From Bacteroidota bacterium (GTDB lineage: Bacteria; Bacteroidota; Bacteroidia; JABEUT01), in NCBI GenBank assembly GCA_013289165.1, contig JABDAL010000012.1:1-48883 (forward strand): a DNA stretch of 48,883 bases, written 5' to 3'. Below are positions 39,409 to 48,883 of the stretch, in pieces (within the stretch, counting starts at the first letter, position 1; each line of letters opens with the position of its first letter). The notes below the pieces were generated by a model, which was not told where the DNA came from, ran no database searches, and was given only the letters and a program-made list of their open reading frames with translations. Position numbers and translations under genes: made by a program.

Positions 39409-40414
39409 ATGAATATACCAATCAAATTAATTGTTATGAGCACTTTATTGATTAACTCGATTGCTAAAGCACAACAACCCTCTATGAAACCTCTTGATGC
39501 TGACCTGACTGAATACCAATATCCTTACCCGGTGCATTTTATCACACTGACTATTCAGGGTGAAGTTTTAAAAATGGCTTATATGGATGTGAAGCCCGTT
39601 AATCCAAATGGGCATGTAATAATGCTTTTGCATGGAAAAAATTTCAATGGTTTCTATTGGGGAGAAACTGCAAAGGTTTTATCTGATAGTGGCTACAGGG
39701 TTATTATTCCTGATCAGATTGGTTTTGGAAAGTCATCCAAGCCCGAACATATTCAGTACTCGTTTCAGTTGTTGAGTGAAAATACAAAAGCAATATTAGA
39801 TTCGCTGGGTATTAAAAAAGGTTTGCATGTTGGGGCATTCTATGGGTGGCATGGTTGCAACCCGGTTTACATTGATGTACCCCGAAATGGTAGAGAAATT
39901 CATTTTGGAAAACCCTATTGGTCTGGAAGACTGGAAAGTAAAAGTACCTTACCTGTCCGTTGATAAATGGTATCAAATAGAATTAAAAGAGGATTATAAT
40001 TCTTTTAAAAAATATGAACTTGAAAGTTATTTTCATGGTACGTGGAGAGCCGATTATGATAAATTGCTGGAAATTCCGGTAGGATGGACTCTAAGCAAAG
40101 ATTATCCCCGTATTGCATGGAATTCTGCTCTTACGTATGAAATGATTTTTACACAACCAGTGTGCTATGAATTTGAAAATATCAAGGCACCTACATTGTT
40201 AATCATTGGACAGTTAGACAGAACAGCAATGGGTAAGAATCTGGTGAGTGAAGAAGTAGCAAAAAAATCGGGCAATTACCCTGCATTAGGGAAATTGACT
40301 CATGAAAAGATAAAAGGATCAAAGCTTGTTGAACTTGACGGAATAGGCCATGTGCCACACATCGAAGCCTTTGACAGATTTATTCAGCCATTATTGGAGT
40401 TTCTGAAATCATAA
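39409..40414 (+). pseudogene. alpha/beta hydrolase, frameshifted
   Basis: Two track ORFs (39,409-39,963 and 39,827-40,414) are the two halves of one ~335-residue secreted hydrolase. The first half has a signal peptide (MNIPIKLIVMSTLLINSIAKA), HVIMLLHGKNFNGFYWGETA and VIIPDQIGFGKSSKP. The second supplies the nucleophile elbow GHSMGGMVATRF, LLIIGQLDRTAMGK (Asp) and GIGHVPHIEAFDRF (His). The frame breaks in the A6 tract at 39,814-39,819: with five A's the protein reads IKKVCMLGHSMGG without interruption. The triad is otherwise intact. It may be a recent mutation, a sequencing error or a slippage site. Confidence 0.8.
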
Positions 40415-40504: not shown

Positions 40505-40533
40505 TTAACCTACTATCTTTTTTAACTTCTCCA
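40505..40533. repeat. 29-bp imperfect direct repeat, right copy
   Basis: TTAACCTACTATCTTTTTTA continuing ACTTCTCCA. Same orientation as 35,855-35,883, with 3 mismatches. It adjoins the integrase remnant. Confidence 0.75.
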
Positions 40534-40538
40534 GGTAC

Positions 40539-40670
40539 GAGAGCAATAACCAATCTGAGGTTTCCTTGGTTTATCTCATGGAAATATTTTCGCACTCAAG
40601 TATTGCTACCACAAAACGTTATATAGGTATCACTGAGAAACAGATTGCGGATGTGTATATGAATTTGTAA
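40539..40670 (+). pseudogene. tyrosine recombinase/integrase, C-terminal remnant
   Basis: Too short for the ORF track. The frame ending at TAA 40,668-40,670 reads ESNNQSEVSLVYLMEIFSHS, then SIATTKRYIGITEKQIADVY and MNL. This is the C-terminus of a phage-type integrase: the '...H-S-S-I-x-T-T-x-x-Y' pattern with the catalytic tyrosine in KRYIGI, in the usual place. The Arg-containing box and the N-terminal DNA-binding domain are gone. It lies immediately upstream of the McrC/McrB pair (which runs toward it). Confidence 0.72.
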
Positions 40671-40695
40671 TTTATTGAATAATCCTATGCTGTTC

Positions 40696-42093
40696 TTAAT
40701 TACTATTTAAGACTGATGCAATCCTACTTAGGAATGCCTGCTCATTTTTTATCAATTCTTTCATAGAATGTGCTTCTGAAACATAAATGCCATCAACGAT
40801 AAAATTGACCTCATTTTCATTGTTTCCGTAAATGGATTTTGAATGAGCCTTAACTACTTCATTAGGTCTTGATAATGGATAAATCAAACCACTTGCTATT
40901 AAATTATTGCGGTAATATCCCGAATAGGAATGTATTTGATGCAAATCAGACCTGTCCACATCGCCATTTTTCATCTCCATTTTTTTAAATTTGGCATCAA
41001 AAACAACGACCTTACCATTTGCTCTGTGCCTCATTACTATGTCAGGAAACATGCAACGATTATAAAATTGCTGTTGATAAATCCTTATTTCTTCCTGACC
41101 ATTAACAAGCCATTCTGGAAAGCCTCTGCTCAGCAATTTCTCAATATACAATTCATACAGTTCGGCTATATCAAAGAGGTAACCATTAGTTGCCAATCGT
41201 TCACTTTCATTATCTGGTATCAGACCTTTATCCAGTAAAATTATTTCAGCGTAGTCTAATACTTTTTTAAACCCACTGTACATTGGATTATTTATTGATT
41301 GGTGAACTTTTGCTTTCTGAATAGTTTCATAACTTACATAACGACCAGAATAATGCTGTTTAAGCAATTGATTCAACCCCAACAAACGGCTATGAATTTC
41401 CCTGCCGAAAAGTATTTCAAGTTTTCGCAAAGACAAATAGAGCACATCAACAATTTCCTGCACATACAATCGCTCCCTAAAATTGCTCGTTAGTTTTCCC
41501 TTAAACGGAATATCTCTTTTTAGATATTCATTAAAATCAATATTACCCCTTACTTTATGGCTTCTTTCCTGATGCTTTTTGTATTGTTGTGGCAATCCTA
41601 AAACAGCCGCCTTTTCAAGTGACTGAATAAACAAATAAGCAATGATGAATAAAAACTGGTTTTCGGTCTCGTCTCTTTTAGCTTTTATTTGTTCGTTATC
41701 AACATAAATATCATTTACAAAATTGAGCATACGCTTTAGAAACGCATCCCCGTATTTGGTGGTGATATTGATTTTACAGCCTTTATAAAACAAAACACCA
41801 GCATACAAACCTGTTTGAACGAAGTACTCTTTCTCCTTTTCGAGTATTTCGGTTGAATACAATTTTAAAATGAGCCGTTCTTCGTTTTCTTCAAAGCGTC
41901 TACGTTTGAAGTTGAATATTCGTATTTTTTTTAGTTGTTTAGCGCCAAGTTTAAGTTCATAAACCGATGAAAACAATTGTTGTAATTGCTTCTTATCTCC
42001 TGCCTTTTTTACCCCAAAAGATTCGGCCAAATCCGACTCCCGGATAGGTGCTTCTGCGTAAAAATTGTGATTGACAGGTATACTTATTCTCAT
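40696..42093 (-). CDS. mcrC: McrC-family restriction endonuclease subunit
   Basis: 465 residues. The N-terminal part matches the McrC OB-like/'DUF2357-type' region. The C-terminal half contains the PD-(D/E)xK nuclease core: CMFPDIVMRHRANGKVVVFDAKFKKM (Asp, then D-A-K). Together with McrB this forms a GTP-dependent nuclease that cuts DNA carrying modified bases. It starts one base after the mcrB stop (TAA-A-ATG), so translation is coupled. It is the last gene of a minus-strand operon. Confidence 0.88.
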   Translation of the reverse strand: MRISIPVNHNFYAEAPIRESDLAESFGVKKAGDKKQLQQLFSSVYELKLGAKQLKKIRIFNFKRRRFEENEERLILKLYSTEILEKEKEYFVQTGLYAGVLFYKGCKINITTKYGDAFLKRMLNFVNDIYVDNEQIKAKRDETENQFLFIIAYLFIQSLEKAAVLGLPQQYKKHQERSHKVRGNIDFNEYLKRDIPFKGKLTSNFRERLYVQEIVDVLYLSLRKLEILFGREIHSRLLGLNQLLKQHYSGRYVSYETIQKAKVHQSINNPMYSGFKKVLDYAEIILLDKGLIPDNESERLATNGYLFDIAELYELYIEKLLSRGFPEWLVNGQEEIRIYQQQFYNRCMFPDIVMRHRANGKVVVFDAKFKKMEMKNGDVDRSDLHQIHSYSGYYRNNLIASGLIYPLSRPNEVVKAHSKSIYGNNENEVNFIVDGIYVSEAHSMKELIKNEQAFLSRIASVLNSN

Positions 42094-42094
42094 T

Positions 42095-44212
42095 TTATTG
42101 CATAGGTCTCTTAAATCGGTTCAAAGCTTCATCCAATTTGCTGTCAAGTTTACTTTCAGCAAATACGGCCCTTAAATACTCTTTCAACGTTGGGCGTAGA
42201 TACAAGTTGAACAATGCTTCCAGATTATGTTGACTAATCTCTTTGCGTTTGGCAATGTCACTCATCTTCATGAAAAAGGAATGGCCAAACTCGTAAGATT
42301 TACCTAGCCCCAATTCGTTAGAAATGTAGTTGTTCAGTTTTTCACAAGCCTTTACATATTGCCCCATATTGGTAAACTCCTCTCGTTTTTTAAATCGGGT
42401 TTCTTCTTCTATCACATCATAATCACAATCTTTTCGAATCCATTTGAAACGTCTTCGGAGTGCCAAATCAAACGCATCAATACTTTTATCCACATCGTTC
42501 ATCATACCTATAAAAAACACATTATCGGGCACACCAAATTTTACTTCACCATTGTCAATGATATAGGCAAGGGTTTTGTGTTTTTCATCTTCTTTGATTA
42601 AATCTTCAATGAGTGTAGAATATTGAGTTCTAATCAAATTTTTGCTGCTTTTACTAACGTGGCGATAATCTTTTTCCAACATTGATAAAGTTTCTCCAAA
42701 TACTGTGGACAGATTGGCCCGGTTAATTTCATCTACAACAAAATAAAACTGCTTACCGGGATTGTTTTTTGCCTTGATACAGAAGTTCTTGAAAACTCCA
42801 TTTACCAATTCAAAGCGAATGTTTCCGTCTTTTGAAACACCTTTTGGTTTTATGCCCTCAATAAAATCTTCGTAGGTAAATGATGGGTGAAATTGCAATA
42901 TTTCGTAACGAGAACTATCACCCTGGCAGACAAAATCCAGGCTGTTTATAACCGAATATGTTTTGCCAGTACCTGGAGGACCGTACAAAATAACATTGGG
43001 GCTGCTTGCATCAGCTATGGTTCTTGCATTCACATAACTCCATAAAAAACGCGAAAGCAAAATAAGTTCGCCCTTATCTTGTTCGTTTACTTTTAAAAGC
43101 TTCTTGGCAACTAAACAAACGTGATGGTTTTTCGTAAAGATGCCCTCTGCATCACCATCAATGAAATCGTTGTACAATTCTTCGAGCCATTGTGTAGAGT
43201 AGATATAAAGAAAATCGGCTAAATTGTCTAAAACAGCAATTTTCATCAAAATCTGTTTAGCACTATATGTCGCCTCTTCCACCAGTTGTATTTTCACCAA
43301 AGGATCGGTTTCTGATACAATACTTCTCAATAAACCTTTGATGTTGTCTTTGAAATAGCTCTCTGCTTCTGACTTTGAGGCATTTTGATTGTTTTGTTTT
43401 AAGATGTAATACGTAGCATTATCATTATTCAACTTTACTTCAAAATTAAAAGCCGTTCCCGGTTTGGAAGAACCCAAAACGGTGCGAGTAGTTCGCTCCA
43501 GAAAGTTGCATAAGTACCCACCGGGCATAGTGGCTGTTTTACTGCCAAATATATTGGTATAATCATCCAAAGCCAGCGTGTCGTTAATAATTTTATCCTT
43601 GTATTGCACCCATTGCGTAAGGACGTTTTTAATTTCGCTGTCATTGAAGTTTTTATCTTCCTGTTTGGTTTCGCTTTTGAATTTTTCCCAAAGGACTTTG
43701 ATTTGGTTTTGTCTTTCGGTTGGAAGCTTTATATTATCCATAAGTTTCTTGTAATTAGCTAATTTATACCATTCAACAATAAAATCATTAGTTGCATTGC
43801 TACCATTGCAATAGGTTAATGTGCCCGGAGCCTGAATATGATTTGTACCATAATCACTCAAAATATGATTTAGAAGGATTTTCTCCTCATCACCATAAAA
43901 TCCCAGTACTTCAATTTCCCTTCGCAAAGGAAACCAGTCAAAATCATCATCTATATTCGACTCGACATAAGCTTTATCAATTACTTTTACCAATGCCACC
44001 GGGGTACTCCCATCTCTAACCATCACCACGTCTCTAATTTTCATATCGTCTCTGAACCACTTGGGATCATCGACGGGATTTCCATTTTTGTCATTCCACG
44101 ATTCATCCATGCCGATGACCCGCTTTTCAATCAAAATTGCTTTAATTGTATCAATATCTAACCGCTCATCCGGATGTAACTGTATATGCCAGTAATTTAG
44201 TTTCTGCTGCAT
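42095..44212 (-). CDS. mcrB: McrB-family AAA+ GTPase with an N-terminal recognition domain
   Basis: 705 residues from ATG 44,212 (MQQKLNYWHIQLHPDERLD). The AAA_5-type P-loop GPPGTGKTYSV is at ~411-421, and Walker B is FYFVVDEINRANLSTVFGETL. Both match McrB, including the EDFIEGIKP block. The first ~110 residues (NYWHIQLHPDERLDIDT..., DMKIRDVVMVRDGSTPVALVKVID) look like an EVE/PUA-type modified-base reader, by pattern only. The middle ~250 residues are family-specific. The track start is 25 codons too long. The upstream leader carries TATCTTCG, a near-match -7 element. Specificity for methylated or other modified bases cannot be read off. Confidence 0.85.
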   Translation of the reverse strand: MQQKLNYWHIQLHPDERLDIDTIKAILIEKRVIGMDESWNDKNGNPVDDPKWFRDDMKIRDVVMVRDGSTPVALVKVIDKAYVESNIDDDFDWFPLRREIEVLGFYGDEEKILLNHILSDYGTNHIQAPGTLTYCNGSNATNDFIVEWYKLANYKKLMDNIKLPTERQNQIKVLWEKFKSETKQEDKNFNDSEIKNVLTQWVQYKDKIINDTLALDDYTNIFGSKTATMPGGYLCNFLERTTRTVLGSSKPGTAFNFEVKLNNDNATYYILKQNNQNASKSEAESYFKDNIKGLLRSIVSETDPLVKIQLVEEATYSAKQILMKIAVLDNLADFLYIYSTQWLEELYNDFIDGDAEGIFTKNHHVCLVAKKLLKVNEQDKGELILLSRFLWSYVNARTIADASSPNVILYGPPGTGKTYSVINSLDFVCQGDSSRYEILQFHPSFTYEDFIEGIKPKGVSKDGNIRFELVNGVFKNFCIKAKNNPGKQFYFVVDEINRANLSTVFGETLSMLEKDYRHVSKSSKNLIRTQYSTLIEDLIKEDEKHKTLAYIIDNGEVKFGVPDNVFFIGMMNDVDKSIDAFDLALRRRFKWIRKDCDYDVIEEETRFKKREEFTNMGQYVKACEKLNNYISNELGLGKSYEFGHSFFMKMSDIAKRKEISQHNLEALFNLYLRPTLKEYLRAVFAESKLDSKLDEALNRFKRPMQ

Positions 44213-44352
44213 GTAGCGAAGATAGGAATAAAAACTTGATGAAGCTGGGGATAAGCAACTTCCATACTGACTATACGGCCATATCAACCACTATTACACA
44301 GAAATATATTAAAAAAAGCCGGTTGTTTTCAGATGTTTATTTAAGTCTGTTA

Positions 44353-44934
44353 TCAGATTAAAGGAGTAGTAAATCTTATGTGGTCGTCGTTTGTGGTAAA
44401 GAACCGTGTTCCCGTACCTGTTCCCTCATAAGGAAATGTAAGTTTATTCATTGTTGCGGAATATAAGTCTATTTTCTCCCGGACTTCATTCTTATAGTCC
44501 TTCCAAAAACGCATTACGAAACCAGAAATCAAATCCGCAATCTGAAGGTAGATATTTGATTGGGAGTCTTGGAAGTATAAATTATTTGCCTCGTTTATGC
44601 TGTATGTTTCATATTTCAATGAGATAATATCGCCTACTAACTCATCAGTATTAAGTTTTTTCATTCTTTCAAAAGCCGACCGATAAATAATGCCATTGTG
44701 TTCCTCCATATCATGAACTATATTGAATTGTCCTGATAGGAAATCGTTACTGTATTTTTGCGCTCTTGCAAGAATGCCTGTAAATGCACTGAAGCCAGTT
44801 AGGAAATGAATAGATTTATTATGAGGATTCTGGTCGGGCAACGGTAGGTAGTTTTTTAGCACACTCTCGCCCCCTTTTGATAGATCTGCTACTAAATCAG
44901 TCTTTGTGTGGATCACATGGTTTTTTAATTCCAC
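44353..44934 (-). CDS. DUF3800-like protein, 5'-truncated
   Basis: 193 residues. The C-terminal part (DSQSNIYLQIADLISGFVMRFWKDYKNEV) resembles the DUF3800 family end ('D.....LQ.ADLI.G...R....'). An upstream block FNIVHDMEEHNG...ERMKKL also fits. DUF3800 proteins normally begin with a 'DESG' strand that carries acidic residues; this is missing. The only normal start is a GTG at 44,934, with a TGA 11 codons upstream. DUF3800 proteins often accompany restriction and toxin genes, and this one lies 140 bases upstream of mcrB. It may have lost its front end when the element decayed. Confidence 0.5.
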   Translation of the reverse strand: MELKNHVIHTKTDLVADLSKGGESVLKNYLPLPDQNPHNKSIHFLTGFSAFTGILARAQKYSNDFLSGQFNIVHDMEEHNGIIYRSAFERMKKLNTDELVGDIISLKYETYSINEANNLYFQDSQSNIYLQIADLISGFVMRFWKDYKNEVREKIDLYSATMNKLTFPYEGTGTGTRFFTTNDDHIRFTTPLI

Positions 44935-45005
44935 GTCATTTTGTAATGTGAAATATTCAAATAATCAATAAAATACGTATAAGGTCACATTTCCACAAAA
45001 AGAAA

Positions 45006-45046
45006 CTGCCAAAACATTTTTAAGCTGCCAAAACACTGCCAAAACA
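45006..45046. repeat. three copies of CTGCCAAAACA
   Basis: CTGCCAAAACA at 45,006-45,016, 45,025-45,035 and 45,036-45,046 (the last two directly tandem). It could be recombinase or regulator binding DNA. The rest of 44,935-45,270 has no gene. Confidence 0.6.
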
Positions 45047-45145
45047 AAAGTGAGCGGATGTGAGTAGGTGTGAATCCATGTTAGAAGCCCAGTATTTACA
45101 GGTGCAGCCGTGGCTTATTATGAAGCGATATGAACCCCAAAGTGA

Positions 45146-45166
45146 GGTCCCGGGCGGATTTGAACC
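45146..45166 (-). other. tRNA 3'-end-like sequence, possible attachment-site relic
   Basis: The minus strand reads GGTTCAAATCCGCCCGGGAC, then C: a T-loop TTCAAAT with its 3' stem and an acceptor-like CGGGACC. The 5' acceptor GGTCCCG and the anticodon arm are absent upstream, so it is not a tRNA gene. It could be an att site left by integration into a tRNA. Confidence 0.35.
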
Positions 45167-45269
45167 ACTGTACATGTTGAATCCGCACCTATCCTTTTAA
45201 TGGTAGAGGAATCAATTGTACTGGGAAATTATGGAGGAGTGAGAATTTTATATCCAGCAACTTAACCCA

Positions 45270-45341
45270 CTATAATATATACTGGGAGTAAGAGAGCGAA
45301 AAAATGAAAATGAAAAATGAAAACAGGAATAACTTCTTCAT
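45270..45341 (-). pseudogene. 5' remnant of a third GloVer paralog
   Basis: ATG 45,341 begins MKKLFLFSFFIFIFSLSYSQ, then YIL, and hits TAG at 45,272-45,270. This is the signal peptide of the neighbouring GloVer paralogs (MKKLSLFLFFIFSFSFSYSQYILYG). The upstream sequence to about 45,390, including the TAnnTTTA element, also matches the intergenic DNA before the next paralog. Homology stops at the codon for Tyr, so the rest of the gene was lost at this exact point. Confidence 0.82.
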
Positions 45342-45392
45342 TTAAGAGCAGTTTCGATGTGTAAATATAGTAATAAAAAAGAGGCGGAAAAC

Positions 45393-46850
45393 CTAACGTT
45401 CCACTCCAAGTTTGCCCTCCCCAGCAAGGCTACCCTCTTGGGTAAGCACCCTGTAAAAATATACCCCTGCCGGTTGATTGCTTAAATTTATTTCTGTAGT
45501 TGTGGAATTTACACTACCCGCATACACCTTTTCCCCAAGCACATCGTATATTTCTATTATGTTTCTGGTTCCCGGTTCGTAATTGCTAATTTGAAGTGTA
45601 AATACCCCCCTGCCCGGGTTGGGGTATGCCTTTACACTGCCTTGTGGAGCATGTATACTATTAACCCCTAAATGAATAGCCGTATCTACCAACGTTAAGC
45701 TACCTACGGGATAAGCTCCATTGGGGCCTGTAAAGTCAAGTAATTTGGTGTAGATATTGGTAGTTATATCATAGCTGAAAAGTACTCCATATCCGGCACT
45801 ACCTCCATTGGAGGTAGTACCATACAGCAACCCGTTATCCGGGTCTTGGACAAGAGAACCATAGGAATTACTGCCATCCGTACCATTAAAGGTTACTAAT
45901 ACTTTTTCGGTATTGTTTGCAGGGTTGAAGCTAAAAAGTACCCCGTCTCTCGCTGCATCTCCTCCTCCATAGGTCATACCATAAAGTAGGCCATTGGATA
46001 ATTGAAGCAATTCATTCGTGTTCGGATAGGCTCCATACTTTCCGCCAAACGAGTAAACCACGTTTACACTACCTGTTTGAGTATTGAACGTATAAATAGC
46101 TCCCGAATCGGCTTTTCCACCTGCTTGGGATGTTCCGTAAAGCAAGCCATTGTTTGCCTTAATAAGCCCGCTGGTTGGTTCATTAGGACTATTATTAAAA
46201 CTAACGTATACACTGTCCTTATTGGTTTTAGGATTAAAGCCATATAGTACTCCGTTCCCAAACTTACCTCCGCCTTCGGTTACTCCATATAGGATACCAC
46301 TTGCCGTATCCTCCCATAATTCCATAAAGCTCCCCCAACCTGTAACTGTATCTACTAAATTATACTGTACACTGTCTTTCCCGGTATGGATGTCATAATT
46401 ATAGATTACCCCTCCACCATATTTTCCACCCTGCCATGATGTTCCATAAATCAGCCCATTTTTAGCCTGCATAAGCTGATTATCGCCATCGTTGGTATAA
46501 CCATTTGTACTGTCGTAGTTAATTACCACATTTTCGGTGTTGGTTTTTAAATTAAAACTGAACACAGTTCCCATACCATTAACTCCTCCTTGAGCTGTCG
46601 TTCCATATACTAGGCTATCCGGAACATAGAGTAATTTTGATACAGGTCCAAATCCATTAGTCCCGTTAAAACTAAAAAGTATGGTTTGTTTTTTGGTTAA
46701 GGGGTTATAGCTGAATATGGTGCCATACTTAGCGGGCTCATTGGGGTCATAATATGCTCCCCCTCCTCCCGTTACTCCATATAATATATACTGGGAGTAA
46801 GAAAATGAAAAGCTGAAAATGAAAAATAAAAATAGTGATAACTTCTTCAT
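45393..46850 (-). CDS. T9SS-exported GloVer-repeat protein
   Basis: 485 residues with signal peptide MKKLSLFLFFIFSFSFSYSQ. The mature part consists of about seven GloVer repeats of ~55 residues (e.g. FGPVSKLLYVPDSLVYGTTAQGGVNGMGTVFSFNLKTNTEN, NGLIYGTSWQGGKYGGGVIYNYDIHTGKD), likely a beta-propeller. The T9SS type A sorting tail is VKAYPNPGRGVFTLQISNYEPGTRNIIEIYDVLGEKVYAG, followed by NLSNQPAGVYFYRVLTQEGSLAGEGKLGVER. It is 75-80% identical by eye to the gene at 46,901-48,366, so the two are a recent tandem duplication. Ligand or activity unknown. Confidence 0.87.
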   Translation of the reverse strand: MKKLSLFLFFIFSFSFSYSQYILYGVTGGGGAYYDPNEPAKYGTIFSYNPLTKKQTILFSFNGTNGFGPVSKLLYVPDSLVYGTTAQGGVNGMGTVFSFNLKTNTENVVINYDSTNGYTNDGDNQLMQAKNGLIYGTSWQGGKYGGGVIYNYDIHTGKDSVQYNLVDTVTGWGSFMELWEDTASGILYGVTEGGGKFGNGVLYGFNPKTNKDSVYVSFNNSPNEPTSGLIKANNGLLYGTSQAGGKADSGAIYTFNTQTGSVNVVYSFGGKYGAYPNTNELLQLSNGLLYGMTYGGGDAARDGVLFSFNPANNTEKVLVTFNGTDGSNSYGSLVQDPDNGLLYGTTSNGGSAGYGVLFSYDITTNIYTKLLDFTGPNGAYPVGSLTLVDTAIHLGVNSIHAPQGSVKAYPNPGRGVFTLQISNYEPGTRNIIEIYDVLGEKVYAGSVNSTTTEINLSNQPAGVYFYRVLTQEGSLAGEGKLGVER

Positions 46851-46870
46851 TTAAGCACAGTTTCAATATG

Positions 46871-46878
46871 TAAATATA
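46871..46878 (-). promoter_or_regulatory. candidate -7 element of GloVer gene
   Basis: Reads TATATTTA on the minus strand (TAnnTTTG with one mismatch), about 21 bases upstream of ATG 46,850. The same element recurs at 48,388-48,395 for the next paralog and at 45,362-45,369 before the truncated one, so it was duplicated with the genes. Confidence 0.4.
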
Positions 46879-46900
46879 GGAAATAAAAACGGGCGGAAAC

Positions 46901-48366
46901 TTACCGTTCCACTACAAGTTTGCCCTCTCCAATAAGGCTACCCTCTAGGGTAAGCACCCTGTAAAGATATATCCCATTCGGTTGATTGCTTAAATTTATT
47001 TCTGTAGTTGTAGAATTTACACTGCCCGCATACACTTTCTCCCCAAGCACATCGTATATTTCTATTACATTCTTAGCTTCAGCTCCGTAATTATTGATTT
47101 GAAGTGTAAACACCCCCCTGCCAGGATTAGGGTATACCTTTACACTGCCTTGTGGAACATTTATACTATTAACCCCTGTATGAATAGCCGTATCTACCAA
47201 AGCTAAGCCTATAGGATAAGTTCCATTGGAGCCTGTAAAGTCAAGTAATTTGGTGTAGGTATTGGTAGTTATATCATAGCTGAAAAGAACTCCATATCCG
47301 GCACTCCCTCCATAGGTTGTAGTTCCATATATTAAGCCATTATCAGGGTCCTGAACAAGATTGCCTTGCGGGATTCTGCCATCCGTGCCATTAAAGGTTA
47401 CTAATACTTTTTCGGTATTGTTTGAAGGGTTGAAGCTAAAAAGTACCCCGTCTCCTGCTGCATCCCCTCCTCCCCAAGTCGCACCATAAAGTAAGCCATT
47501 GGATAATTGAAGTAATTCATTCGCATTTGGGTAGCCCCCGTGCATTCCGCTAAACTGGTAAACCATGTTCATAGCACCCGAATGGGTGTTAAACGTATAA
47601 ATAGTTCCTGAATCGGGTTTTCCGCCCGCGTCGGACATCCCGTAAAGCAAGCCATTGCTTGCCCGGATAAGCCCGCCTCTTGGTTGATAAGGCCCATTAT
47701 TAGGAGATAATTTAAAATCAACATATACACTGTCCCGGTTCGTTTTAGGATTAAATCCATACAGCACGCCCTGACCAGCCCCCCCGTCCTCTGTCGTTCC
47801 ATAAAGTATGCCGCTCACCGTATCCTCCCATAATTCCATATAGCATCCCGAACCTGTAACTGTATCTAATAAATTATAACGTACACTGTCTTTCCCGGTA
47901 TGAATATCGTAACTATAGATTACCCCTGCACCATATTTTCCGCCCATCCAGGATGTTCCATAAATTAGCCCGTTTTTTGCCTGCATCAGTTGATTAACGC
48001 CAAGGTTTGTATAACCATTTGCGCTGTCATAATTAATTACCACATTTTCGGTGTTGGTTTTTAAATTAAAACTGAACACAGTTCCCATACTATTAGCTCC
48101 CCCTTGATTAGTGGTTCCATAAACTAAGCTATCCGGAACATACAGTAATCTGCACAAAGGTTCAAATCCATCCGTCCCGTTAAAACTAAAAAGTGTGGTT
48201 TGTTTTTTGGTTAGGGGGTTATAGTTGAATATAGTGCCATACTTAGTGGGATCATTGGGATCATAATATGCTCCCCCCCCCCTGCCGCTACTCCATATAA
48301 TATGTACTGGGAGTAACAAAATGAAAAACTGAAAACGAAAAGTAATAAGATAGTTAGCTTTTTCAT
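46901..48366 (-). pseudogene. GloVer-repeat T9SS protein, out of frame at a G10 tract
   Basis: The track ORF starts at 48,319 without a signal peptide. The real start is ATG 48,366 (MKKLTILLLFVFSFSFCYSQ, then YILYGVAAGGG). The two frames meet at a run of ten C on the plus strand (48,273-48,282, G10 in the coding sense). Eight or eleven G's would keep the frame, but ten do not. The remainder is seven GloVer units and an intact T9SS sorting tail (VKVYPNPGRGVFTLQINNYGAEAKNVIEIYDVLGEKVYAG...), so apart from the tract the gene looks healthy. It may be phase-variable, mutated or mis-sequenced. Confidence 0.8.
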
Positions 48367-48387
48367 TTATAGGAATATATTAATATG

Positions 48388-48395
48388 TAAATATA
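48388..48395 (-). promoter_or_regulatory. candidate -7 element of the frameshifted GloVer gene
   Basis: TATATTTA on the minus strand, about 22 bases upstream of ATG 48,366, the same arrangement as for the paralog at 46,850. Confidence 0.35.
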
Positions 48396-48402
48396 GGAAA
48401 TA

Positions 48403-48433
48403 AAAACGGGCGGAAAAGACTTACGCCCGTTTT
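48403..48433 (-). terminator. intrinsic terminator of the gene at the window end
   Basis: AAAACGGGCG and CGCCCGTTTT form a perfect 10-bp stem around an 11-base loop, followed on the minus strand by T-rich DNA (TTTTTATTTCC). It lies 4 bases after the stop of the 48,437 gene, right before the GloVer promoter. Confidence 0.75.
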
Positions 48434-48436
48434 ACC

Positions 48437-48883
48437 TTATCTTTCTATTAATAAATTATCCGTTTTTACAGGTTTTTGGTTATTGTCTATAATCCGATAA
48501 TGGTAGACACCTTGTGCCAATGAACCTACCGGTATAGTGGTCAGGTTACTTGTCAACGAATAAGTGAGGGTTAACTGGCCTAACCCGTTATATAAATATA
48601 TCGTTCCTGTCATTTCCTGCCCAATAAATTCGACATTAAGCAAGGTATTGGCAGGGTTAGGATATACTTTAACTGTCAGGTTCTTATTATCAGGTACAGT
48701 GCTTTGCGTACTTGCCGGTTTCTTTACAGGCCGGTGCGCGTATGCACGCCCATTGCCATATATCTCCTCGCAAGCACTGTAGTAATCGGTGGAGTCTATA
48801 GGGGCTAACAGGGCCCTGGCTAAATACACCCCTGTACCATATTGATAAGGGCATAGTGGTGCATATTGCTGGAGTATGGATTT
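48437..48883 (-). CDS. C-terminal part of a T9SS-sorted surface protein (partial)
   Basis: The frame is open to the window edge (149 codons); the track start GTG at 48,829 is internal. The visible part begins SILQQYAPLCPYQYGTGVYL, then ARALLAPIDSTDYYSACEEI, a Cys-containing segment often seen in large Bacteroidota surface proteins before the sorting domain. A Pro/Thr linker (KKPASTQSTVPDNKN) leads to a T9SS type A tail: VKVYPNPANTLLNVEFIGQ..., YNGLGQLTLTYSL, LAQGVYHYRIIDNNQKPVKTDNLLIER. The N-terminal part and function lie outside the window. Confidence 0.78.
   Translation of the reverse strand, partial: KSILQQYAPLCPYQYGTGVYLARALLAPIDSTDYYSACEEIYGNGRAYAHRPVKKPASTQSTVPDNKNLTVKVYPNPANTLLNVEFIGQEMTGTIYLYNGLGQLTLTYSLTSNLTTIPVGSLAQGVYHYRIIDNNQKPVKTDNLLIER

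What the first reader, a model, noticed from the sequence alone, without database searches (positions are those of the whole stretch)
40505..45341. Decayed mobile segment carrying McrC/McrB and a DUF3800-like gene, with mapped edges
On the left a tyrosine-integrase C-terminus survives (40,539-40,670). On the right, DNA that resembles a tRNA 3' end (45,146-45,166) is followed at 45,270 by the point where a GloVer paralog is cut after its signal peptide. Between them lie mcrC, mcrB and a shortened DUF3800-like gene. The simplest reading is an integrated defence island that has lost part of its integrase and carries a 5'-truncated accessory gene. McrBC family functions are established knowledge; the DUF3800 pairing and the island boundaries are inference from sequence.
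Basis: partly seen in the sequence, partly recalled or inferred. Interest (0 to 1): 0.72.

Follow-up and report, generated by a model that had tools for sequence, protein, structure and literature searches.

The report
Intact McrBC in decayed defence island
A complete two-gene bacterial restriction system that probably cuts foreign DNA carrying modified bases sits in the debris of a broken mobile element that once used a tRNA gene as its docking site; the type of system is known, but its relatives show that the part that reads the modified base has been exchanged many times between them.

Summary
mcrB and mcrC are full length with intact motifs. They form a canonical NxxD type IV restriction system with an EVE/YTH-like reading head. 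The debris around them is real. On the left are the last 44 of about 195 residues of a short tyrosine recombinase. On the right is a tRNA-Cys 3' end, 19/19 identical to the genome's own tRNA-Cys on another contig, followed by a TTTTGGCA repeat arm that recurs beside that tRNA-Cys and in a sister genome. The true right border is about 45,143-45,176, not the GloVer stub: the genome's second GloVer array ends in a similar stub without any island. The DUF3800 gene has lost its N-terminal half with the YIDESG motif and adjoins mcrB in none of 31 close relatives. No second tRNA core and no empty site were found, so the island is a remnant, not a mapped unit. Unexpected: among 24 McrB relatives the reading head changed type at least 10 times on one core. 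Known kind of system; modest interest.

The parts
40536..40670 (+). C-terminal 44 residues of a ~195-aa tyrosine recombinase (5' three quarters missing)
   Evidence: 73-77% identity to residues 152-195 of complete relatives in G009 and G108; homology starts at 40,539
40696..42093 (-). mcrC, intact, 465 aa, PD-(D/E)xK nuclease subunit
   Evidence: PF10117 E=7e-33; 42-83% identical to McrC beside mcrB in 29 relatives; FPD-x14-DAK motif at residue 349
42095..44212 (-). mcrB, intact, AAA+ GTPase subunit (probable ATG at 44,212)
   Evidence: AAA_5 E=6e-16; Walker A GPPGTGKT, Walker B YFVVDE, MNDVDKS (NxxD) signature; 50-85% identity to about 30 McrBs
43733..44212 (-). McrB N-terminal reading head, EVE/YTH-like (type A)
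   Evidence: AlphaFold2 pLDDT 89, pTM 0.86; best PDB match VcaM4I EVE-HNH, then EVE and YTH proteins; no Pfam family
44353..44934 (-). 5'-truncated DUF3800 gene (C-terminal half, 193 codons)
   Evidence: PF12686 64-148/149; full relatives are 363-387 aa, about 195 N-terminal residues with YIDESGNTGDL missing
45001..45142 (-). Putative attachment arm with three TTTTGGCA repeats (45,007; 45,026; 45,037)
   Evidence: 79-80% identical to G009:C17 including core, E=1e-34; homologous to the second core in own contig C10
45143..45176 (-). tRNA-Cys 3'-end core (attachment-site remnant; best right border)
   Evidence: 19/19 with own intact tRNA-Cys, similarity over about 35 nt
45177..45270 (.). Unassigned 94 bp between the core and the GloVer stub
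   Evidence: no match in any locus fetched; not recognisably tRNA
45271..45342 (-). GloVer N-terminal stub (MKKLFLF...SQYIL), flank rather than island
   Evidence: alignment with five other array copies

Best explanation
The segment 40,536-45,176 is the relic of a defence island. What still works, most likely, is a canonical McrBC type IV restriction system. McrB hexamers would dock on DNA through an EVE/YTH-like head that recognises a modified base, use GTP to move, and recruit or activate McrC to cut (inferred from established McrBC biochemistry; motifs and fold shown here). The cargo arrived with a mobile element whose ~195-aa tyrosine recombinase belongs to a family found beside defence genes in the same genus, and whose attachment arm abuts the 3' end of tRNA-Cys. 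Deletions then removed most of the recombinase, the 5' half of a DUF3800 gene and the matching left attachment site. The tRNA core no longer adjoins a tRNA, so the element cannot leave as it stands. Shown: gene content, intact motifs, truncations, tRNA-Cys origin of the core, recurrence of the arm, and absence of mcrBC from the sister genomes searched. Inferred: that integrase tail, arm and mcrBC came from one element, the order of deletions, and restriction activity.
For: Intact McrB/McrC with conserved motifs and about 30 close relatives in Bacteroidota, Acinetobacter, Vibrio and Pseudodesulfovibrio. Reading head folds like VcaM4I EVE and YTH domains. mcrB not found in any of ten sister-genus genomes. 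Complete homologues of the integrase tail neighbour CBASS cyclases, a SLATT effector, MzaC, C5-methylases and a restriction enzyme. The tRNA-Cys core plus arm recurs at own tRNA-Cys on C10 and in sister genome G009 contig C17, which also carries that integrase and R-M/CBASS cargo. A small gene (KLPRFNSF type) lies beside the integrases of L196/L197 and inside the arm-flanked 2-kb remnant of L094, linking arm and integrase to one element family.
Against: No second core and no empty site. The integrase tail and the att arm are not contiguous, so they might come from two elements. The recombinase lacks the usual N-terminal arm-binding domain and might be a resolvase rather than the integrase that used the TTTTGGCA arm. 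Several sister genomes are incomplete (52-99%), so absence of mcrBC is weak in some. The window lies in a 70%-complete MAG.
Confidence: 0.72

Rival explanations
1. Composite scar: the integrase tail belongs to one element, the tRNA-Cys core and arm to another, and mcrBC came in by a separate event; their adjacency is hot-spot accretion.
For: No contiguous integrase and arm in the window; own C10 has a core-arm relic without integrase; G009 C17 shows nested or tandem remnants with two cores.
Against: Integrase family and arm share a contig in G009 (C17: 14.0 kb and 37.4 kb) and a marker gene; mcrC ends 26 bp from the integrase stop, as cargo adjoins the integrase 3' end in L196 and L198.
Confidence: 0.2
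2. One reading: insertion cut a full GloVer gene, and the ends at 40.5 and 45.3 kb are a matched pair.
For: The GloVer copy is cut and an integrase tail and tRNA core lie inside.
Against: The C43 array of the same genome also ends in a GloVer stub with another breakpoint and no island; 94 bp of other DNA separate core and stub; no repeat joins the two edges.
Confidence: 0.05
3. A functional three-gene DUF3800-McrB-McrC system in which an RNase H-like DUF3800 protein assists restriction.
For: DUF3800 is immediately upstream on the same strand; DUF3800 has an RNase H-like fold and occurs with Cas12a2 (PMC10910872).
Against: N-terminal half and YIDESG motif missing; 140-bp gap to mcrB; only 4 of 31 mcrBC relatives have any DUF3800 and none beside mcrB.
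Confidence: 0.02
4. Assembly chimera in a metagenome bin joins unrelated DNA at 40.5 and 45.2 kb.
For: MAG, 116 contigs, 70% complete.
Against: Left flank (G003, 86% aa), core and arm (own C10, G009), integrase tail (G009) and GloVer (own C43) all have best or near-best kin in the same genus or genome.
Confidence: 0.03

Closest known systems
EVE/YTH-headed McrBC type IV restriction systems (EVE-McrB; Bell et al. 2020 PMC7641849, Bell et al. 2024 PMC11090510)
   Same: N-terminal modified-base reader of the EVE/YTH superfamily fused to an NxxD McrB GTPase, PD-(D/E)xK McrC next door, frequent type I R-M neighbours in relatives
   Different: Here without an R-M neighbour, on a decayed tRNA-Cys element; the head has no Pfam family; heads of near relatives belong to four types
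E. coli K-12 McrBC (PDB 6ut6, 7vsr, 6hz4)
   Same: GTPase and nuclease domains, gene order, signature motifs
   Different: K-12 head is DUF3578, here EVE/YTH-like; not at the immigration control region
tRNA-targeted integrative elements and genomic islands
   Same: tRNA 3'-end core, repeat-bearing arm, tyrosine recombinase, defence cargo
   Different: Recombinase truncated, core present once, arm no longer beside a tRNA; not an intact element
VcaM4I EVE-HNH endonuclease (PDB 6yex)
   Same: Best fold match of the reading head
   Different: VcaM4I is a single-chain EVE-HNH enzyme without GTPase

Membership tests
McrBC type IV restriction system (canonical NxxD branch) | McrB AAA+ GTPase with Walker A/B and NxxD signature | tested here: met
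   GPPGTGKT, YFVVDE, MNDVDKS; profile hits E. coli McrB at E=1e-53 to 3e-54
McrBC type IV restriction system (canonical NxxD branch) | McrC with PD-(D/E)xK nuclease next to mcrB | tested here: met
   PF10117 E=7e-33, FPD-x14-DAK, adjacent on the same strand
McrBC type IV restriction system (canonical NxxD branch) | modified-base reading head on McrB | tested here: met
   EVE/YTH-like fold by AlphaFold2 and Foldseek; ligand not tested
McrBC type IV restriction system (canonical NxxD branch) | GTP-dependent cleavage of modified DNA | not testable with these tools
   needs biochemistry
CoCoNuT (NxD branch) | NxD GTPase motif | tested here: not met
   window has NDVD = NxxD (criterion from PMC11090510)
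tRNA-targeted integrative element | core identical to a tRNA 3' end | tested here: met
   19/19 with tRNA-Cys
tRNA-targeted integrative element | core repeated at both ends | tested here: not met
   one copy in the window at up to 2 mismatches
tRNA-targeted integrative element | complete integrase gene | tested here: not met
   44 of about 195 residues left
tRNA-targeted integrative element | empty site in a relative | tested here: inconclusive
   left flank not syntenic in any sister genome looked at
DUF3800-McrBC association | DUF3800 gene beside mcrB in relatives | tested here: not met
   0 of 31 genomes with close mcrBC

The most novel reading that the evidence does not exclude
This McrB lineage evolves specificity by wholesale exchange of EVE/YTH-type reading heads at a fixed joint (about residue 160) on a conserved GTPase core while moving between phyla, comparable to target-domain shuffling in type I HsdS. 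The window's McrB would be one such recombinant: its core is sister to a Parafilimonas McrB (84%) with a type C head, while its own type A head is closest (72-74%) to Acinetobacter and Bacteroidales heads.
Probability: 0.75. Interest if true: 0.5.

Novelty: new member of a known kind. Interest (0 to 1): 0.32.

Why it matters
As a defence island it is ordinary. It adds an EVE/YTH-headed McrBC in an uncultured Bacteroidota genus, a recombinase family that marks defence cargo there, and a tRNA-Cys docking arm that can be searched for. The more useful result is the head-swapping series: near-identical McrB cores with unrelated reading heads are natural chimaeras, so which modified base each head reads could be compared on one chassis.

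Tried and rejected
Empty site in sister genomes via the NmrA, hydrolase and GloVer neighbours: hydrolase 86% in G003 but no shared neighbours, NmrA orthologues 44-50% in unrelated surroundings. Inverted match of the core to a GloVer coding segment (I6): wrong orientation and short, taken as chance. tRNA body in the 94 bp beside the core: local alignment no better than shuffles, P=0.75; only the 14 nt next to the core are suggestive, P=0.011. Rfam: nothing at gathering threshold; weak hits over the left flank are far below their cut-offs, so no DUF3800-type RNA. Plasmid relatives of McrB: distant only. Viral contigs with this recombinase: 29-36% identity only; phages have 34-39% relatives such as Bacteroides phage BS-TP1 and Cellulophaga phage phi46:1, so a phage origin of the element stays open. 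A GloVer fragment near the end of G005 C139 was not used because the contig ends just beyond it. Profile comparison of heads A and B is partly inflated by the shared linker at the end.

Full report
Observation. The window is a whole contig (C12) of a 2.2-Mb, 116-contig, 70%-complete MAG. McrC (465 aa, PF10117 E=7e-33) and McrB (AAA_5 E=6e-16) are adjacent on the minus strand. McrB probably starts at the ATG at 44,212 rather than the upstream TTG, because its relatives begin at the same MNYW segment. The DUF3800 fragment matches only positions 64-148 of 149 of PF12686.

McrBC is not decayed. McrB has GPPGTGKT, YFVVDE and MNDVDKS, i.e. the NxxD signature of canonical McrB GTPases and not the NxD of CoCoNuTs. 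McrC has FPD-x14-DAK. A scan of one genome per species gave about 30 McrB relatives at 50-85% identity, mainly Bacteroidota but also Acinetobacter, Vibrio and Pseudodesulfovibrio. An adjacent McrC at 42-83% identity follows wherever the contig continues. None of the ten sister-genus genomes has this McrB (completeness 52-99%).

Reading head. Residues 1-160 match no Pfam family, but AlphaFold2 gives a confident model (pLDDT 89, pTM 0.86) whose best PDB matches are the EVE-HNH enzyme VcaM4I, EVE proteins and YTH m6A readers. EVE-McrB is the commonest EVE defence fusion (PMC7641849). By established McrBC knowledge the head should find a modified base, McrB should hydrolyse GTP, and McrC should cut. 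The base is unknown.

DUF3800. Plasmid relatives at 24-30% identity are 363-387 aa. The window ORF aligns only with their C-terminal half and lacks about 195 residues with the YIDESGNTGDL motif. Of 31 genomes with close mcrBC, four have any DUF3800 gene and none has it beside mcrB. A DESG-motif search of 20 more distant McrB loci also found none. The proposed pairing is rejected.

Left side. The 44 residues from 40,539 are 73-77% identical to the ends of complete ~195-aa tyrosine recombinases in sister genome G009 and in G108 (PHROG 216). These lie beside SMODS cyclases and a SLATT effector (CBASS), with MzaC, C5-methylases and a restriction enzyme further along the G009 contig. In L196 and L198 cargo genes follow the recombinase 3' end directly, as mcrC ends 26 bp from the recombinase stop in the window. 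Homology begins abruptly at 40,539, so three quarters of the gene are gone.

Right side. 45,146-45,164 equals the 3' end of the genome's own tRNA-Cys(GCA) on contig C10 in 19/19 bases, with weaker similarity to about 45,176. Next to it, leftwards, is a segment with three TTTTGGCA repeats in 40 bp. This core-plus-arm unit recurs 80% identical in G009 contig C17 (E=1e-34). A shortened version starts within about 80 bp downstream of the intact tRNA-Cys on C10; among 395 genomes searched only these carry the arm over such length. In G009 a second core 2 kb on has its arm on the other side and a terminator beyond it, the layout of the two ends of an element. The remnant between them holds a small gene that elsewhere lies beside the recombinases. 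That gene and the shared G009 contig tie arm and recombinase to one element family; this link is inference.

Borders. Because the arm points left, the element lies left of 45,143-45,176 and that is its right border. The GloVer stub is 94 bp further out and is not diagnostic: the second GloVer array on C43, without an island, also ends in a stub, broken at another base. No second tRNA core lies in the window. Sister genomes are not syntenic on the left, so no empty site could be read. The hydrolase to the left is frameshifted, while its G003 homologue is an intact 332-aa gene.

Head swapping. Aligned McrBs agree from about residue 160 onward, but the heads before it fall into four types by sequence. 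Identity between core-sisters jumps from about 10-40% to 60-100% within one or two 20-residue blocks. A maximum-likelihood tree of 24 cores needs at least 10 changes of head type where 3 is the minimum, nearly as many as with shuffled labels (mean 12.1; 22 of 200 shuffles as low). The window core pairs with Parafilimonas (84%; bootstrap 94, SH-aLRT 91) although that McrB has a type C head. Type C, modelled at pLDDT 72, again matches YTH domains and the N-terminal domain of Thermococcus gammatolerans McrB. The variety of McrB heads is known (PMC7641849, PMC11090510). I found no report of exchange within one close lineage, but the library is incomplete. Four typed heads and 24 sequences are a small sample.

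Verdict. A new member of a known kind: an intact EVE/YTH-headed McrBC in the remains of a tRNA-Cys-associated mobile element.

Noticed in passing
L115-L143, McrB residues 1-160: Four types of reading head are scattered over one McrB core tree, at least 10 changes among 24 proteins, with a sharp joint at about residue 160.
   Followed up: partly
L126, L133, L135, L137, L139, L143 and others: Relatives of this mcrBC are often nested in type I R-M operons, HsdM/HsdS upstream and HsdR downstream; the association is known from PMC11090510.
   Followed up: partly
L116: 7186-8001: In Acinetobacter pittii the mcrBC copy starts 456 bp downstream of the tmRNA gene, a common island site.
   Followed up: no
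L033: 4266-4468 (own contig C10): The intact tRNA-Cys is followed within about 80 bp by a second copy of its 3' end and a shortened TTTTGGCA arm, a relic of an earlier insertion.
   Followed up: partly
window 39409-40414 (+): Alpha/beta hydrolase gene split by a frameshift near 39,830; G003 has an intact 332-aa homologue, 86% identical.
   Followed up: partly
window 45271-48829 and L059: 10962-14602: The GloVer tandem array and the T9SS protein beside it are duplicated on contig C43 at 82-88% DNA identity, each array ending in a truncated third copy.
   Followed up: partly
L059: 16645-19617: A 990-aa ORF that looks like a RecB-family nuclease domain fused to an IS66-type transposase, judged by eye from the translation.
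   Followed up: no
L094 and L196 (G009 contig C17): A large defence cluster in a sister genome: three SMODS cyclases, SLATT, MzaC, two C5-methylases and a restriction enzyme between the recombinase and a tRNA-core relic.
   Followed up: partly
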